Source: Gemmatimonadaceae bacterium
Lineage (GTDB): Bacteria > Gemmatimonadota > Gemmatimonadetes > Gemmatimonadales > Gemmatimonadaceae
Length of the DNA: 43,562 bases
Assembly (NCBI GenBank): GCA_036003045.1
Contig: DASYSS010000086.1
Span: 1 to 43,562, forward strand
Reading direction: 5' to 3'
The translations under genes and the position numbers were made by a program. Each line of letters starts with the position of its first letter. Position 1 is the stretch's first letter. A model generated the notes under the pieces. It ran no database searches. It had not been told where the DNA came from and saw only the letters and a list, made by a program, of their open reading frames with translations. Shown piece after piece: positions 6,442 through 43,109 of this stretch.

Positions 6442-7584
6442 ATGAGACTCAATATTGCGCTTGCCCTGTTCGGTCTCGCTACACCCCTCGGCGGGGGCGG
6501 TCTTGGCGTAAACCTCGGTGCCGGCAGGTTCGGCCCCCTCAGCCCCCTCAGCCCCCCCAGCCCCCCCAGCCCACCCAGTTCCCCGGCCGCCGCGCCGTGC
6601 ACGACGGCGACGGCACCGTGCGAGCGCTGGATCACCTTCGGTTCGGGGCCCGCCCGATCGATGGTGTACGCGTCGTACCCGCTCGACGTGGTCGACCCGG
6701 CGATCACGCGCGCCCTCGTCATGGTGCACGGCGCCGGGCGAAACGCGGACCACTATTTCGAGACCAGCACCGCCGCCGGCTTCCTCGCCGGCGCGCTCGA
6801 GAACACGATCATCGTCGCGCCGCACTTCATCGCGGGGCGGGACAAGCCGGCGGCCAACGAAGTGATGTGGCCGGAAGGGCAGAACTCGTGGCGCTCCGGC
6901 GGCATGTCGCCGACGAACCCTACCATCTCGTCATTCGATTTCTTGGATGAGATCATCCGCAAGCTGGCCGACAAAAAAGTCTTTCCCAACCTCACCAAAA
7001 TCGTCGTCGCGGGTCACTCGGCCGGCGGGCAGGTCGCGACGCGGTACGAGATGACGAGCAAGACGTACGGGACGCCGGGTGTGAGCATCACGTACGTCGT
7101 CGCCAATCCGTCGACGTACGCGTGGCCCGCGGCTGTGCGTCCCCTGCCGACAGGAAACGCCGACCCGGCGACGGCCGACAAAGAAGCGCTCGGCCCCGAC
7201 GGCGAGAAGGTCAACACGAGTTTTCAGTTCGGCGCGTTCGATACGACGAAAGCGCGCAACTACAATCGCTGGCCCGCGGGCCTCGAGAATCGGGCGGGCT
7301 ACAGCGCAGGCCCGTCGAACGAGCAACTGGTGAAACAGCTCGTCGACCGGCCGACGACCTACCTGCTTGGTCAGGTCGACGTGCTACCCCTCGGCGGCTT
7401 CGACGGATCGGCGAACGCTATGGCGCAGGGTCCGACACGGCGGGCGCGAGGGGAAGCTTTCTTCAAGTACGTGACCGAAACGCTCGGCGCCAAGCACAAC
7501 GCGATCATCGTTCCCGAGTGCGGGCACAACGATCGCTGCATCTTCACGACGGACATCGTATTTCCGGTGATCTTTCCCAAATAG
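6442..7584 (+). CDS. Secreted alpha/beta hydrolase (esterase-like)
   Basis: 380 residues with an N-terminal hydrophobic segment followed by a Pro/Ser repeat (residues 32-46) that acts as a linker. The catalytic region starts near residue 60. The oxyanion strand is ALVMVHGAGR (91-100), the nucleophile elbow is GHSAGG with Ser193, a candidate acid lies in LLGQVDVLPLGG and the catalytic His in PECGHNDRC near the C-terminus. The fold is that of a secreted esterase or PHB-depolymerase-like hydrolase; the substrate is not evident. It stands alone: the gene to its left is divergent and the gene to its right convergent. No Shine-Dalgarno sequence is obvious before the ATG. Confidence 0.88.
   Translation: MRLNIALALFGLATPLGGGGLGVNLGAGRFGPLSPLSPPSPPSPPSSPAAAPCTTATAPCERWITFGSGPARSMVYASYPLDVVDPAITRALVMVHGAGRNADHYFETSTAAGFLAGALENTIIVAPHFIAGRDKPAANEVMWPEGQNSWRSGGMSPTNPTISSFDFLDEIIRKLADKKVFPNLTKIVVAGHSAGGQVATRYEMTSKTYGTPGVSITYVVANPSTYAWPAAVRPLPTGNADPATADKEALGPDGEKVNTSFQFGAFDTTKARNYNRWPAGLENRAGYSAGPSNEQLVKQLVDRPTTYLLGQVDVLPLGGFDGSANAMAQGPTRRARGEAFFKYVTETLGAKHNAIIVPECGHNDRCIFTTDIVFPVIFPK
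6534..6578 (+). repeat. 9-nt minisatellite (5 units) coding Pro-Leu/Pro-Ser
   Basis: Five consecutive 9-base units, CCCCCTCAG twice, CCCCCCCAG twice and CCCACCCAG once, lie in frame in the hydrolase gene and encode PLS-PLS-PPS-PPS-PPS. The length divides by three, so gain or loss of units would keep the frame and only change linker length. Confidence 0.95.
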
Positions 7585-29992: not shown

Positions 29993-30571
29993 CTACTTGA
30001 GCTCCTTGACGAACCTCGCGTACTCGGCGCGGTGGACGGCGACCGTCGCTGACGGGCCGAACATCTGGATGAACAGCGTTCCGCGAGGCGTTTCTACGAT
30101 CGCGGCGATGAGCGTCTGGCCGGTCCGCACCGAGTCCGCCGAACCCGCGCCGACTCCTCGCCGGTAGGTGCCGCGAAACTCGGCCGTCGTCACGGGAAAC
30201 GTTCCGGACGAATCGCGGGTGACCGTCTCCGGGACGGCGGATCCATCGGGCGTCGAGAATTGGCTGCGCCAGCGGCCGAGGTTTGCCTCGACGTTTCCGC
30301 CCTGCGACGTGCCGAAGAAAAACACGACGACCTCGGCGTCGCTCGCCGCATCCGCACCCTGCACGACGAACTGCGCCAGTCTGGAGGACGACGCAGGCGG
30401 ACGAACCGACCATCCGGCTGGTGCCTTGGTGTGATAGCCGAGCAGCGTGATCGTCGAGTCGCCGGCGGCATGCGCGGCGAATGAGCGCGGACCGGGGAGT
30501 GCGACGGCCACCCGAGCACTCGTGAAAGAGAGTGCGGCGACTGCGTAGATGAGGAAGAGACGTCGAGTCAA
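29993..30571 (-). CDS. Secreted protein of unknown function
   Basis: 192 residues with a signal peptide (RRLFLIYAVAALSFTSARVAVA). The mature part, about 150 residues, resembles a PsbP/Mog1-like sandwich: PAGWSVRPPASSSRLAQFVVQ, AEVVVFFFGTSQGGNVEANLGRWRSQF, then TTAEFRGTYRRG, and TLIAAIVETPRGTLFIQMFGPSATV near the end. Similar proteins occur in planctomycetes and gemmatimonads without a known role. It ends 20 bases before the DUF2007-like gene, so the three may form an operon. Its start is 66 bases from the outer edge of the repeat element. Confidence 0.75.
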   Translation of the reverse strand: MTRRLFLIYAVAALSFTSARVAVALPGPRSFAAHAAGDSTITLLGYHTKAPAGWSVRPPASSSRLAQFVVQGADAASDAEVVVFFFGTSQGGNVEANLGRWRSQFSTPDGSAVPETVTRDSSGTFPVTTAEFRGTYRRGVGAGSADSVRTGQTLIAAIVETPRGTLFIQMFGPSATVAVHRAEYARFVKELK

Positions 30572-30636
30572 AGGCGTGCGCGGTTGAGACGATCAAAATT
30601 GGGAGGGAATCGCGTGTGCGCGCAATCAACGACGCC

Positions 30637-30721
30637 AACTTCCCAACGGCGCTGACTTCCAAAGAGCGCGAACTCCCCAACACCGCCACCGTCCCAAGAG
30701 CGCCAACGTCCCAACGACGGT
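30637..30721 (+). repeat. Left array of 17-nt repeats (5 units, plus a partial one)
   Basis: Five contiguous 17-base units: AACTTCCCAACGGCGCT, GACTTCCAAAGAGCGCG, AACTCCCCAACACCGCC, ACCGTCCCAAGAGCGCC, AACGTCCCAACGACGGT. A degraded further unit (ending CAACGACGCC) precedes at 30620-30636. No spacer separates the units. They lie just 23 bases past the stop of the four-helix-bundle gene. Confidence 0.92.
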
Positions 30722-30744
30722 AACTGCGTAGCGGCCTCTGGATG

Positions 30745-31080
30745 TCACGTACGGAGTAGGGAGCTCAGCATCTTGCTGATGGTGACCAAGCGATCGCGCA
30801 GCGGCCAAAAAGGATTTCGCCTGATCCTCCCAGCCGCGTAGTTGGCCCGGAGGTGCCGAATCGTCTTCTCGGACTCACTCCGCGCCACGCGTAGCCAATG
30901 ATCGCGGCCGCCTTCTTTCCCGCGGCCGAACGCCTCGCTGATGTTCGCCGAGATTGCCTGCGACGATCCCCGTAGGCGCTCGGCGTGGAGGACCCGAGGC
31001 GTCGAGTCGAGCAAACGATTGATCTCGTCGGCAACGAGCCTGGCCGCCTCCAAGACGTTCAAGTTTCGATGATCGCCCAT
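30745..31080 (-). CDS. Four helix bundle protein (S23 / 23S rRNA-intervening-sequence family)
   Basis: 111 residues, about the usual length for the family. The core signature is recognisable: RGSSQAISANISEAFGRGKEGGRDHWLRVARSESEKTIRHL, matching the S-x-x-I-x-x-N-I-x-E-x-x-G-R ... R-x-S-x-x-E pattern, between an N-terminal helix (LEAARLVADEINRLL) and a C-terminal helix (LRDRLVTISKMLSSLLRT). The family includes the protein encoded in 23S rRNA intervening sequences and the Avd accessory of diversity-generating retroelements; these are pentameric, basic, nucleic-acid-binding barrels. No reverse transcriptase is near. The gene is flanked on both sides by mirrored arrays of a 17-nt repeat. No clear Shine-Dalgarno sequence. 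Confidence 0.88.
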   Translation of the reverse strand: MGDHRNLNVLEAARLVADEINRLLDSTPRVLHAERLRGSSQAISANISEAFGRGKEGGRDHWLRVARSESEKTIRHLRANYAAGRIRRNPFWPLRDRLVTISKMLSSLLRT

Positions 31081-31161
31081 GCCGTAGCATGGGTCGCCCG
31101 ACGCCAGGGTGCATCACCGTTGCCATCCGAGCAACACCGTTCCCACGCCACCGGATCTCGA

Positions 31162-31297
31162 GGCAAGTTTGCGACGTTGGCGTCGTCGGGAAGTCGGCGT
31201 GGTTGGGAAGTTGGCGTCGTTGGGGAGTTCGCGTCGTTGGGGAGTTCGCGTCGTTTGGAAGTCGGCGCCGTTGGGCAGTCAGCGCCGTTGGGCAGTT
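31162..31297 (-). repeat. Right array of 17-nt repeats (8 units), inverted relative to the left array
   Basis: Exactly 136 bases, eight units with no spacer. On the minus strand, from the outer edge inward: AACTGCCCAACGGCGCT, GACTGCCCAACGGCGCC, GACTTCCAAACGACGCG, AACTCCCCAACGACGCG, AACTCCCCAACGACGCC, AACTTCCCAACCACGCC, GACTTCCCGACGACGCC, AACGTCGCAAACTTGCC. The outer unit begins directly after the TAG stop of the M20 peptidase gene. Confidence 0.94.
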
Positions 31298-32695
31298 CTA
31301 AACGGATGGCCCTCCAGTCATCCGTTTCACCAATTCGTACAGGAACGTCTGTCCTTGATAGAACGACTCCACTTTGAGCCGCTCGTCGCGGCCGTGGAAG
31401 CGAATGTCGTCGCGGTCGTAGAAGAATCCCTGAATTCCGTACGTCGGAATGCCGGCCGAGCGCAAATACGCGCCGTCGGTGGCTCCCATGACCATCATCG
31501 GAACGGTCTGGACGCCCGGCCAAAGTTGCGTCGTCACGCCGGAGACGGCGGCCAAGAGATCCTGCCGCATCGGCGACGCCGGCCCGTGGATCGGCGTGCC
31601 GTCGATCGTGAGCGAAACGGCGGTATCGCCGATGATGCGCTTGAGGGTCGCCGTCACGTAGCCGATCGAATCGTCGGGCTGCACACGGCAGTTGACGTTC
31701 GCCGCGGCGAGCTGCGGCAGCGCATTCTTGGCGTGGCCGCCCTCGAGCTGCGTCGCGACGCATGTCGTGCGGAGCGTGGCGTTCCACGCGGTGGATGCGG
31801 CGGCGACACGCGGCATCGCGGCTGCGTCTCCTTTGGCCACAGCGGCGAGATCGGTGCGAATCGGTCCCTTCTCGATGGTCGACAGCGCGCGGAAGTATTC
31901 GCGCGTCACCTCGTTGGTCTTGAGCGGGAATCCGAATTTCGAGAGACGATCGAGGGCGCCGGCGAGGTGATAGATCGCGTTGTCGGCGACGGGCAGCGAG
32001 CTGTGTCCACCCTTGTTGTGCACCTCGAGCCGATAATTGACCACGTACTTCTCGCTCACCTGCAGATCGTTCGCCACGCGCGTGCCCGCGACGGCCTCGC
32101 CCCAGCCTCCCTCGTTCAGGCACAACTCGGCATCGATCAAGTCGCGCTTGTTCTTGAGCAGCCATTGGACGCCGTTGTAGGGTCCGCCGCCCTCTTCATC
32201 GGCGGTCAGCGCGACGATGATGTCACGGTCGGGCTTGAACCCTTCGCGCTTGTAGCGAATGAGATTCGCGATCCACACCGCGGCCTGCGCCTTGTCGTCG
32301 CCGACGCCGCGGCCATAGAAGTAGCCGTCCTTTTCGGTGAGCACGAACGGATCCATCGTCCAGTCTTCGCGCTTCGCTTCGACGACGTCGGTGTGCGCGA
32401 GGAGCAGAATCGGCTTTCGACGCCCGGTTCCGCGAAATCGCACGACGAGATTCGCTTTGTTCGGACTCGCGCCGCCGACGAAGATGTCGGCCGCCGGAAA
32501 GCCGGCCGCTTTGAGACGCTTGGCCACCGCTTCGGCGACCGGCGTCGTCGCGCCCGTCGTGTAGCCCGACTTGATCTCGATCATCTCTTTGTGGATCGAG
32601 CGGGCGAGCTGTCGCTCGGCTTCGGGCGGCATCGTCCGATCCTGGGCGTGAACCGCCGTGGCGCACAGCACGGCGACGAGTGCGACGCGAATCAT
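31298..32695 (-). CDS. Secreted M20 family metallopeptidase
   Basis: 465 residues from ATG 32695, giving a signal peptide that ends at AVHAQ; the open frame runs further upstream but into the kinase gene. Zinc-site motifs: LLLAHTDVVEA (His and Asp), GRGVGDDKAQ (second Asp), ALTADEEGGG (catalytic Glu and Glu ligand) and a final RFHGRDER (His). The dimerisation domain holds HNKGGHSSLP. Full length for M20/M28-class exopeptidases such as CPG70-like carboxypeptidases. It starts 26 bases after the kinase gene stop and probably shares its transcript. Its stop codon abuts the repeat array. Confidence 0.93.
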   Translation of the reverse strand: MIRVALVAVLCATAVHAQDRTMPPEAERQLARSIHKEMIEIKSGYTTGATTPVAEAVAKRLKAAGFPAADIFVGGASPNKANLVVRFRGTGRRKPILLLAHTDVVEAKREDWTMDPFVLTEKDGYFYGRGVGDDKAQAAVWIANLIRYKREGFKPDRDIIVALTADEEGGGPYNGVQWLLKNKRDLIDAELCLNEGGWGEAVAGTRVANDLQVSEKYVVNYRLEVHNKGGHSSLPVADNAIYHLAGALDRLSKFGFPLKTNEVTREYFRALSTIEKGPIRTDLAAVAKGDAAAMPRVAAASTAWNATLRTTCVATQLEGGHAKNALPQLAAANVNCRVQPDDSIGYVTATLKRIIGDTAVSLTIDGTPIHGPASPMRQDLLAAVSGVTTQLWPGVQTVPMMVMGATDGAYLRSAGIPTYGIQGFFYDRDDIRFHGRDERLKVESFYQGQTFLYELVKRMTGGPSV

Positions 32696-32721
32696 GAGAT
32701 CCTCGTGTAGTCGAGAGGTCA

Positions 32722-35700
32722 CTAGCTCTTTCCGCCCGCCTGAAGCTTGGCGAGCCGCCGCTTCGCATCGGCGACCGACGGCTGCAGTTCGGGATCGGCG
32801 TTCTTCCACAACTCGACGAACTTGGAAAGATGCGAGATCGCTTTCTCGCGGTCGCCTTTCGCGTCGTACAACTCGCCGAGTCGCTTGTGCGCGCCGGCAA
32901 GGCCGACCCAGTCGTCGTCGTAACGGCCGTCGTACGGAACGCGCAGGAAAGTCTCCAGCTCGGCGATCGCCGAATCGGGCTTGTTCGCCAGGTCGTACGC
33001 GCGGCCGAGGTTGAAATGAACGGTCACCGGGTTTTCGGTCGCGGGATGACCGTCCGAGGCCGTGTCGGCCCGCTGAAACTCGCGAATCGCGTCGGCGTAG
33101 CGCTTTTCTGCCAGCGCGATCTCGCCTAACGCGGCGTGAATGGCGGGCTGCGTGCTTCGGAGAAGCGCCGTGTCCTTGATCTGTGCGAGCTGGGCGAGAA
33201 TGGCCCGCGCGCGATCGGGCCTGCCCGCAACGGCGTAGTTGATGGCAAGCGACGTGTACGGGCGATCGCTCTCGGCGTAACTGGCGAGCGGACGCGCGGC
33301 GAGGGCCGCGTCGAGGCGCGCCGCGGCCCGCTGCGGCTGATTCCTGAGCCAGGAGTCGTACGCCGCCATGGTGATCGAGTCGGAGATCGGCATGGTAGCG
33401 CTTCCCGATTGCGCGGAGAGAGCCGCGGATTCGTGATAGCGTCGTTCGGCCTCACTCAGTCGGCCGTTCACCGCCAGCAGCTCTGAGGAGAGGTAGGTCG
33501 CGCTGGCCCGCACGTCAACGGAGCGCGACGCGGCGTTGACGCTGTCCAGAATGTGGCCCGCGCGCTCGTATTGACCAGCACTGTAGGCCACGAGGTACAG
33601 GCCGTACGCGTACGCCCCGCTGTTCGAAATCCGTTTCGCTTCCTGTGCGACCAAGGAATCCAGCAGTGCGGCTTTGCCTTGGTCAATCGCCATGTTGACC
33701 AGGTTCGGCAGCGGAATCGAGTTGTCCGGGCTGATGCGTGTCGACAGCCGGAAGAGGGATTCCGCCTTCGCGAATTCGCGCATCGATACGAGCGCCACGC
33801 CGAGATTGTTCGCCGCGTAGGCGGTGTCGCCCCGATCGATCAGCGCCTGGTACGCGGCGATGGCTCGTTGTCGATCGTGGCCGGGACCGCGTTGGAAGTA
33901 GTATGCCTCGGTCAGATATCGTTCGTTGTCCGACAACCGCGCGCGCAGCTGGTACGCCTTGGTGATGGCGGAGTCCACAGCCGACGCCGGATAGAAGTTG
34001 TTGGACATCGCCGTACCGAGCTTGCGCCACGCGGTTGCAAACCCGGTATCAATCGTGACGGCGCGGCGAAGCAGCGGAATCGCCTTGGTGAAATCGTGCT
34101 CGATGTCGAACGCCCGATTGCCCTCGGTATACGCTTTGAGCGCGTCGAACGACGACGTCGTCACTTGCTCCAGAGACGGACTCGCTTGCACGCTCTTGAG
34201 CGACTCGCCGATCTTGCCGCGCAGCCTGCGCGTAACGTCGTCGACACCGTTCACCAGCTTGCTCGGGCCGTCGACCGTCGTCTGAAACGAGGCGAGCACG
34301 GTGCCGGAATCGGACGCGACGAGCCGCAGCGCAATGACGAATCCGCCGCCCAGACCGGTGACGTCGCCGGTCACGATCGCCTTGACCCCCTCGCGCTGCG
34401 CCAGCTGTCGCGCGAGCGCGACGTCGAGCTTCGACGTCGGCGGCAACTGCATCCGCTTCAGCGCGGCGGCGACGTTGGCCGGATTGAACAGCTTGATCGA
34501 TGGCGATTCGGCCAGATTCGCGCGCACTCCTTCGGCGACGACGCTCCCGACGCTCGAGTCGGCGCGGCTCACGCCGAAATCGGAAACGAGCACCACGTCG
34601 CGCTGGTTGAGCTTTCCGGCGGCGAACAGGGAACCGACCGGACCGACGCCGAATGCGCGCATCACCATGAACGCGATAATGAGCGCGACGAATGCGACGA
34701 CGGCGTAGATGCCTCCTCGCGTCGTGCGCTTCCACGACACGTGCGGGCTCGCCTTGAGCGCGATCGTGGCCATCGTACCGTGCGGCACTGGTCCGCCGCC
34801 CGGCGTGAGTGACGGAGTCGCGGTGATGGCGCGCCGTGCCACCGATTGTACGTAGCCCGTGAACAGGATCACCGGCAGGCCGAGCGCCATGATGACCAGC
34901 GCGCCGGGGAGCACCCACGTCGGCAGTCCGATCGTGACCGTCGCCGCTTTCGCGATCGCCGCCACCGCGACCACCGCCACCACATACATGAGCAGCGCGC
35001 GTCGAAAGGCGGCCGGACCGTTCATGAGCACCGACGGCATCGCCTGCATCCCGCTGCCGCTCGTCACGCCATTGAGCGTGGCGATGATGTCGGAGGCGCT
35101 CTGCGGGCGGTCCTTGGCGTCCTTCGCCAGGCACCGCATCACCAGGTCGCTGAGCGCCGCCGGAGCCTCGGGTCGCAATTCGGCGACCGGTCGCGGAGGC
35201 TCGCCCATGTGGGCCGCGAGGACTCGGGCAGGTGTGCGGCCGTGAAACGGCGGCTCGCCGGCGAGCAACTCGAACGCCATGCAACCGAACGCGTAAATGT
35301 CGGCGCGATGGTCGACGTCCGGATCGCCGGCGGCCTGCTCCGGCGCCATATAGGCGGGCGTTCCGATCGAGGTGCCGAGCTGCGTGAGCGTCGCTTGGCT
35401 TTCGCGGCTGCCGGTGCGCGAGTCGCTCAACGCCTTGGCGATGCCGAAATCGGTGACGACCGCCGTGCCGCCCGACAGGAGAACGTTGTCCGGCTTGATG
35501 TCGCGGTGGACGATCCCGCGTTCGTGCGCGTACTGGAGCGCGCGGGCAACGTCGCCGAGGATGCGCAGAGTGTCCGTCATCGACAGCGGCGGCTGCTTCG
35601 TCATCCGCCGCCGCAGCGATTCGCCTTCGACGAACGGCATCGTGTAATACGGCAGGCCGTTCGTGTCGCCCGTCGCCAGCACCGGAACGATGTTCGCCTG

Positions 35701-42629: not shown

Positions 42630-43109
42630 ATGTGGCAGAAACTGGGCATCGCAGCTGCCGCGTGCATTTCGGTCATCGGCTGTGCGAGCGGCGGAGCGAG
42701 CGGCGGAGCGAGCAGCGCGCCGGCGCCAGCGCCCGTTGTGGCGACGCAATCCGGCCAATCAAATCTGTTCGGCGCGGCGGCGAGCGAGTACACGCTCCTG
42801 AGCGTGGACGGACATCGATTGCCGTATGCGCCGCAGGCGGCGAGCGACGCCGCGCTTCCACCGACGGAAATCGTGAACGGCGCGCTGACCTTGCAATCGA
42901 GCGGCGCGTTCGTGATCTCGACTTCCTATCGCGAGCTGAAGACGGTCGATCGGCGCCTGTTCGACACCAGGTTCAGCGGTGCCTGCGCGCCGGACGGCAA
43001 CGCGTTTCGCATGTTCTGGGACGGGGGCGGGGACACCCAACTCTCGATCAGCGGCGACACGGTGATCGTGAACAACAGTGGTAGCCTGTTCCGATACCTC
43101 AAGCACTAG
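42630..43109 (+). CDS. Lipoprotein, META/HslJ-like fold
   Basis: 159 residues from ATG 42630; GGAGG lies four bases upstream, so the Met ten codons earlier is not used. The lipoprotein signal ends at ISVIGC. A short Ala/Gly/Ser linker, coded by a 12-nt tandem repeat, leads into a compact beta-rich domain: EYTLLSVDGHRLPYAPQAASDAALPPTEIVNGALTLQSSGAFVISTSYREL, then QLSISGDTVIVNNSGSLFRYLK. This pattern resembles META/lipocalin-like small periplasmic domains. Two Cys residues are present (one acylated, one in SGACAPDG). Function unknown. Confidence 0.85.
   Translation: MWQKLGIAAAACISVIGCASGGASGGASSAPAPAPVVATQSGQSNLFGAAASEYTLLSVDGHRLPYAPQAASDAALPPTEIVNGALTLQSSGAFVISTSYRELKTVDRRLFDTRFSGACAPDGNAFRMFWDGGGDTQLSISGDTVIVNNSGSLFRYLKH
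42684..42719 (+). repeat. 12-nt tandem repeat in the lipoprotein linker
   Basis: GCGAGCGGCGGA occurs twice, at 42684-42695 and 42696-42707, followed by a degenerate third copy GCGAGCAGCGCG. It is in frame and codes for a short Ser/Gly/Ala linker directly after the acylated Cys. Confidence 0.9.

What the first reader, a model, noticed from the sequence alone, without database searches (positions are those of the whole stretch)
30637..31297. S23-like four-helix-bundle gene inside a mirrored array of 17-nt repeats
Seen: 5 units of a 17-nt repeat, then the four-helix-bundle gene, then 8 units in the reverse orientation, all without spacers. From each outer edge inward the units come in the same order, so the arms are a true inverted repeat that can pair into a ~85-bp stem with the gene in the loop. 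Known: members of this family are encoded in the loop of 23S rRNA intervening sequences, and a relative, Avd, binds nucleic acid in diversity-generating retroelements. Inference: this is a free-standing relative of such elements, with the protein binding or mobilising its own stem. It is not in an rRNA gene.
Basis: partly seen in the sequence, partly recalled or inferred. Interest (0 to 1): 0.82.

Follow-up and report, generated by a model that had tools for sequence, protein, structure and literature searches.

The report
Self-looping S23-protein hairpin mobile element
The window holds one copy of a tiny, apparently mobile genetic element found in many bacterial phyla: a gene for an S23-type four-helix-bundle protein enclosed by two mirror-image arrays of short repeats, slipped in right after the stop codon of a host gene, and it seems to spread without any known transposase or reverse transcriptase.

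Summary
In detail: a TIGR02436/PF05635 (S23-type) gene lies between inverted arrays of a 17-nt unit that can pair into a long stem. The claim that units come in mirrored order does not pass a permutation test. The architecture is general. About 88% of TIGR02436 genes in relatives of the window's genome (Gemmatimonadota), and most of those sampled in Cyanobacteria, Alphaproteobacteria and other phyla, have matching inverted short-tandem-repeat arms, against 1-2% of control positions; units are usually 7-9 nt and differ between loci. At one fixed site (nuoC|nuoD) the arms covary (0 of 20,000 permutations). In alphaproteobacteria the 5' arm starts at the stop codon of a co-directional gene and the 3' arm ends about 19 nt before the next start. 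Filled and empty sites coexist within one genus at two junctions, different elements sit at the same nuoC stop codon, and a Nostoc genome has two copies 98% identical at unrelated loci. The protein is under purifying selection where tested. Many element-rich genomes lack detectable reverse transcriptase and Y1 transposase. Gene-less hairpin derivatives exist. This is a free-standing, operon-dwelling counterpart of 23S rRNA intervening sequences; how it moves is unproven.

The parts
30627..31297 (-). whole element, arm to arm (about 670 bp)
   Evidence: TRF arrays, inverted alignment; flanked by co-directional genes on the minus strand
31179..31297 (-). 5' arm in gene sense: about 7 tandem 17-nt units, (CAACGGCGCTGACTKCC)n
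   Evidence: TRF period 17, 6.9 copies; begins directly after the stop codon of the upstream peptidase gene
30745..31080 (-). S23-type four-helix-bundle gene (TIGR02436/PF05635), 111 aa
   Evidence: HMM matches over cut-off; AlphaFold2 four-helix bundle pLDDT 94.8, best PDB match 2rld TM 0.90
30627..30719 (-). 3' arm in gene sense: about 5.5 tandem 17-nt units, reverse complement of the 5' arm
   Evidence: TRF period 17, 5.5 copies; pairs with the 5' arm
31298..31300 (-). stop codon (TAG) of the co-directional upstream M20-type peptidase gene 31298-32809; the 5' arm begins at the next base
   Evidence: ORF list and sequence
29993..30571 (-). co-directional downstream gene (hypothetical exported protein), about 55 nt beyond the 3' arm
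   Evidence: ORF list

Best explanation
One copy of a small mobile element made of only an S23-type protein gene and two arms of inverted short tandem repeats. It enters at, or just after, the stop codon of a host gene, in the same direction, and so is transcribed from the host operon. In the RNA the arms pair and close the gene in the loop, which keeps the upstream stop codon and the downstream start close together, so the operon still works; this is what a 23S rRNA intervening sequence does in a ribosomal RNA helix. The protein most likely recognises its own arms (as hairpin RNA, hairpin or cruciform DNA) and, with host replication, repair or nuclease functions, promotes copying and spread; the arms are kept matched and repetitive by slippage and hairpin-templated copying. 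Shown: arm-gene-arm layout across phyla, arm covariation, location at stop codons (alphaproteobacteria), presence/absence, duplication within a genome, purifying selection on the protein, no detectable need for a reverse transcriptase or Y1 transposase in trans. Inferred: looping out in vivo, arm recognition by the protein, the copying mechanism.
For: Own genome: three more homologues, each between inverted arrays of a different unit. 90 Gemmatimonadota loci: inverted-arm score >=35 in 88% against 1.2% of random placements and 0.35% of cross-locus pairs. 80 named loci: Cyanobacteria 16/20, Alphaproteobacteria 33/36, Bacteroidota 4/9, other phyla 11/15, controls 1.4%; 10 cyanobacterial plasmid copies inspected, nearly all with arms. 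Site: in Alphaproteobacteria 32/33 have a co-directional upstream ORF and 29 of those 32 arms begin -10..+15 nt from its stop codon; 33/33 have a co-directional downstream ORF, 3' arm to start median 19 nt. Covariation at nuoC|nuoD: own arms 41.1, swapped 22.6, 0/20000. Mobility: nuoC|nuoD in one genus, 13 filled and about 32 empty, three element types at the same base; acyl-CoA dehydrogenase|mmsB, 10 filled, 19 empty, 1 gene-less hairpin; reciprocal empty sites on two Nostoc plasmids; two 98.2%-identical copies with unrelated flanks in one Nostoc genome. dN/dS 0.06 and 0.09. Arm similarity between elements rises with protein identity. No RVT_1 in the window's genome and most element-rich relatives, nor Y1_Tnp. 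Window RNA: arms pair, z -10.
Against: No binding, expression or transposition was measured. The protein has no recognised catalytic fold, so the copying enzyme is unknown; transposases other than Y1 and reverse transcriptases that RVT_1 misses were not excluded. Insertion at stop codons could be selection against other insertions rather than targeting. Presence/absence rests partly on a short local tree that recombination could blur, and losses are not told from gains. The window's own copy has no clean empty site: congeners lack it but differ in what follows the peptidase gene. The arm/protein correlation is modest outside close relatives (Mantel 14/500).
Confidence: 0.6

Rival explanations
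1. An ordinary host gene with regulatory or terminator hairpins on both sides; not a mobile element.
For: Strong purifying selection on the protein and persistence over considerable divergence at nuoC|nuoD; some homologues without arms look vertically inherited (L084, L086, L087).
Against: Scattered presence/absence at the same junction within a genus, different elements at the same base, copies at unrelated loci in one genome, a different unit sequence at each locus, and up to 19 matches per genome.
Confidence: 0.12
2. Retroelement: like Avd in diversity-generating retroelements, the protein serves a reverse transcriptase acting in trans, and the element is copied from its RNA.
For: S23 and Avd share a fold (4dwl TM 0.68); the elements lie co-directionally in transcribed operons and some lie in rRNA (PMC4990558), as expected if RNA is the intermediate.
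Against: RVT_1 is absent from the window's genome and from most relatives with 7-12 element genes (8 of 40 genomes have any).
Confidence: 0.1
3. A REPIN/MITE-like hairpin moved by an IS200/IS605-type or RAYT (Y1) transposase, the S23-type gene being a passenger.
For: Gene-less inverted hairpins exist in the same genomes and at the same site; insertion at nuoC|nuoD shows no target-site duplication.
Against: Y1_Tnp is absent from the window's genome and many element-rich relatives (13 of 40 have one); the gene is conserved under selection, and arm similarity follows protein similarity.
Confidence: 0.1
4. Plain simple-sequence repeats expanded by polymerase slippage next to an unrelated gene.
For: Heptameric simple repeats are common in some bacteria and slippage has been proposed (PMC4679880, PMC4692102); arm copy number varies freely.
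Against: Slippage alone does not give inverted arms on both sides of one gene family at about 90% against 1-2% of controls, nor covariation.
Confidence: 0.03

Closest known systems
23S rRNA intervening sequences (IVS) with an S23 ORF (Leptospira, Coxiella burnetii and others; PMC4990558)
   Same: Same protein family; ORF in the loop of a stem made by terminal inverted repeats; inserted in a transcribed host RNA that keeps working; patchy distribution; mobility long suspected.
   Different: Here in protein-coding operons, at stop codons, not in rRNA; arms are tandem 7-17-nt repeats that covary and vary in copy number; many copies per genome; near-identical copies at unrelated loci. The Coxiella element has a 28-bp single-copy terminal stem and its protein is reported as probably not made in vivo.
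Avd of diversity-generating retroelements (PDB 4dwl)
   Same: Four-helix-bundle relative of S23.
   Different: No linked reverse transcriptase and none found by RVT_1 in the window's genome; flanking inverted arrays instead.
REPIN-RAYT and MITE systems
   Same: Hairpin repeats with gene-carrying and gene-less forms.
   Different: No Y1 transposase needed by co-occurrence; arms are tandem arrays; a gene of another family sits inside the hairpin.
Cyanobacterial heptanucleotide repeats (STRR) and the GGGAATC / GGGGA(C/T)T repeats of Xanthomonas and Nostoc (PMC4692102)
   Same: Heptamer arrays, often in close convergent pairs; Nostoc pairs read here are gene-less hairpins of the same polarity; cyanobacterial S23 elements have heptamer arms.
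   Different: Most such arrays have no S23-type gene nearby; a common origin is suggested by shape, not proven. The 2015 paper does not mention S23 or four-helix proteins.

Membership tests
TIGR02436 / PF05635 (S23-type, 23S rRNA IVP) protein family | match over the curated cut-off | tested here: met
   39.3 bits (cut-off 33.8) and 34.6 bits (cut-off 24)
TIGR02436 / PF05635 (S23-type, 23S rRNA IVP) protein family | four-helix-bundle fold of the S23 family | tested here: met
   pLDDT 94.8; 2rld TM 0.90, 2gsc TM 0.85
23S rRNA intervening sequence | lies inside a 23S rRNA gene | tested here: not met
   no Rfam match in the window; neighbours are protein genes
23S rRNA intervening sequence | terminal inverted repeats enclosing the ORF | tested here: met
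23S rRNA intervening sequence | excised from RNA by RNase III | not testable with these tools
   needs RNA; a long paired stem is predicted
Diversity-generating retroelement (Avd) | reverse transcriptase in the locus or genome | tested here: not met
   no RVT_1 match in G000
REPIN-RAYT / IS200-IS605 | Y1 transposase in the genome | tested here: not met
   no PF01797 match in G000
Mobile genetic element | presence/absence at orthologous sites | tested here: met
   for relatives; for the window copy only absence without conserved synteny
Mobile genetic element | near-identical copies at unrelated loci | tested here: met
   Nostoc L363/L366, 98.2% over 490 nt
Mobile genetic element | known recombinase, transposase or reverse transcriptase encoded | tested here: not met
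   the only gene is the S23-type protein

The most novel reading that the evidence does not exclude
A categorically new class of minimal mobile element: the S23-type protein, which resembles no known recombinase, polymerase or nuclease, is sufficient with host functions to insert an arm-gene-arm unit at stop codons, and maintains matching repeat arms; 23S rRNA intervening sequences and many cyanobacterial and xanthomonad heptamer repeats are its rRNA-resident and gene-less descendants.
Probability: 0.35. Interest if true: 0.95.

Novelty: new variant of a known kind. Interest (0 to 1): 0.85.

Why it matters
It would give a common explanation to three loose ends: the origin of S23-carrying intervening sequences in rRNA, the role of one of the many 'four helix bundle' proteins of unknown function found in multiple copies per genome, and part of the heptameric repeat arrays that have puzzled people working on cyanobacteria and Xanthomonas. 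It would also add an element that lives inside operons without breaking them and appears to spread without a known transposase or reverse transcriptase. The polymorphic sites in one genus and the near-identical copies in one Nostoc make the question directly testable.

Tried and rejected
Mirrored order of units in the window: not significant. Reverse transcriptase or Y1 transposase in trans: co-occurrence does not support either. A clean empty site for the window copy: peptidase orthologues in three congeners lack the element, but their downstream genes differ. The window protein on plasmids or another member on phages: no match. First cross-phylum alignment was too diverse for a scan. PDB by sequence: only chance matches; fold comparison worked. 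Heptamer repeats next to S23 genes in Nostoc: most GGGGA(C/T)T arrays are not at these genes, so the link to STRR stays an idea. Literature: searches of the open library found nothing that joins this protein family to inverted tandem arrays; subscription journals are not covered.

Full report
Check of the finding. The window gene 30745-31080 (minus) matches PF05635 and TIGR02436 above their cut-offs. TRF gives 17-nt arrays at 30627-30719 and 31179-31296. They are inverted copies: score 93 against a shuffle maximum of 31. The gene-sense RNA folds with the arms paired, z -10. The window has no Rfam match and no tRNA. The claim of mirrored unit order fails a permutation test (43/120). The 5' arm begins at the base after the TAG stop of a co-directional M20-type peptidase gene, and the next gene downstream also runs the same way.

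The layout is general. Three homologues in the same genome found by protein search (C69, C74, C7) each lie between inverted arrays of a different unit (24/25, 17 and 16 nt). TIGR02436 genes occur in 35 of 40 relatives, up to 12 per genome. In 90 loci from these genomes the local inverted alignment of the two flanks scores >=35 in 88%, against 1.2% of random placements in the same loci, 0.35% of cross-locus pairs and 11% for direct orientation. In 80 named loci from a collection-wide scan arms are present (score >=32) in 16/20 Cyanobacteria, 33/36 Alphaproteobacteria, 4/9 Bacteroidota and 11/15 from other phyla, against 1.4% of controls. Units are mostly heptamers such as AGGCAGT, GCGAATA, GGGAACA. 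In 130 of 141 elements the G-rich strand is the 5' arm in gene sense (in 11 it is not); the window's subfamily is among the exceptions. Cyanobacterial plasmid copies sit between nrdB and nrdA, cas6 and cas4, cas10 and cmr3.

Where it sits. In Alphaproteobacteria 32 of 33 elements have a co-directional upstream ORF, and 29 of those 32 5' arms begin within -10 to +15 nt of its stop codon; all 33 have a co-directional downstream ORF, starting a median of 19 nt after the 3' arm. The sense strand of the 5' arm holds stop codons in all three frames in 70% of alphaproteobacterial arms, the antisense in none.

Mobility. At nuoC|nuoD in one genus (Mesorhizobium-type genomes) 13 of 48 loci hold an element (gap 474-499 nt), about 32 are empty (20-30 nt), and two hold other inserts. 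Types I and II start at the same base, inside the nuoC stop codon, without a visible target-site duplication; type III starts there too by inspection. Their proteins are 54-61% identical while within-type dS is 0.65-0.80 at dN/dS 0.06-0.09, which argues for separate arrivals (inference). A local tree needs 13 state changes, at least 5 gains or losses of the empty state on well-supported branches. A second junction (acyl-CoA dehydrogenase|mmsB) shows 10 filled, 19 empty and one gene-less hairpin among 30. Two Nostoc plasmids with the same operon carry elements at different junctions, each giving the empty site of the other. In Nostoc spongiaeforme two copies are 98.2% identical over 490 nt from arm to arm with unrelated flanks.

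Arms and protein belong together. For 36 elements at nuoC|nuoD, own arms score 41.1 and swapped arms 22.6; no permutation of 20,000 reaches the observed mean. Arm similarity between different elements rises from 0.06 to 0.56 as protein identity rises above 70% (Mantel 14/500), also between different sites. Gene-less hairpins with the window's unit family occur at about ten places in its genome, with loops of roughly 30-40 nt.

Mechanism. RVT_1 and Y1_Tnp are absent from the window's genome and from many relatives rich in the element. The protein folds like S23 family members 2rld and 2gsc, and less closely like Avd. I therefore favour a self-contained element that uses host enzymes, with the arms looping the gene out of the host mRNA. 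Layout, covariation and mobility are shown; looping, binding and the copying enzyme are inferred.

Comparison. The nearest known kind is the S23-carrying 23S rRNA intervening sequence, with a stem-enclosed ORF removed by RNase III (PMC4990558). The present elements differ in place, arm structure, copy number and evidence of recent copying. PMC4692102 noted 70-75 close convergent pairs of GGGAATC arrays in Xanthomonas, and Nostoc pairs read here are gene-less hairpins; a shared origin is a lead, not a result.

Limits. Loci were taken by similarity, so fractions are not a random census and the alphaproteobacterial sample is dominated by nuoC|nuoD. No experiment was possible. Literature searches covered open-licence papers only.

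Noticed in passing
L139-L148 (G000 contigs C34, C14, C57, C74, C87, C100, C90): Gene-less hairpins or arrays of the 17-nt unit family GCGCTGACGTCCTWAG..., mostly convergent pairs with short loops.
   Followed up: partly
L084, L086, L087 (genomes G004, G005, G002): A TIGR02436 gene in conserved synteny, 76-87% identical between three congeners, with no inverted arms: possibly a domesticated copy.
   Followed up: partly
L371 and L378 (two Nostoc genomes): The element is 95% identical in the same orientation while one flank matches in the opposite orientation, as if the element or its flank had been inverted, perhaps by recombination between the arms.
   Followed up: no
L342: The 3' array has expanded right up to the first codons of mmsB, replacing its usual start region.
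   Followed up: no
G093 (Nostoc sp. KVJ20), L388-L393: 395 dimers of GGGGA(C/T)T against 14 TIGR02436 matches; all close pairs seen in the listing are convergent hairpins without the gene.
   Followed up: partly
L286 and L288: Other, non-homologous inserts of 146 and 393 nt at the same nuoC|nuoD junction; L288 begins with a short AGGCAGT-like stretch.
   Followed up: no
L122 and L128: Elements lie inside CRISPR-Cas operons (type I-D cas6|cas4; type III-B cas10|cmr3) on cyanobacterial plasmids.
   Followed up: no
L291-L321 (IMG/VR contigs): 24 of 31 S23-type genes on putative viral contigs also have inverted arms; the element is rare in viruses (31 loci in 2.9 million contigs).
   Followed up: partly
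window 6533-6578 and 42684-42717: Short tandem repeats (9-nt GCCCCCCCA x5; 12-nt GCGAGCGGCGGA x2.8) unrelated to the finding.
   Followed up: no
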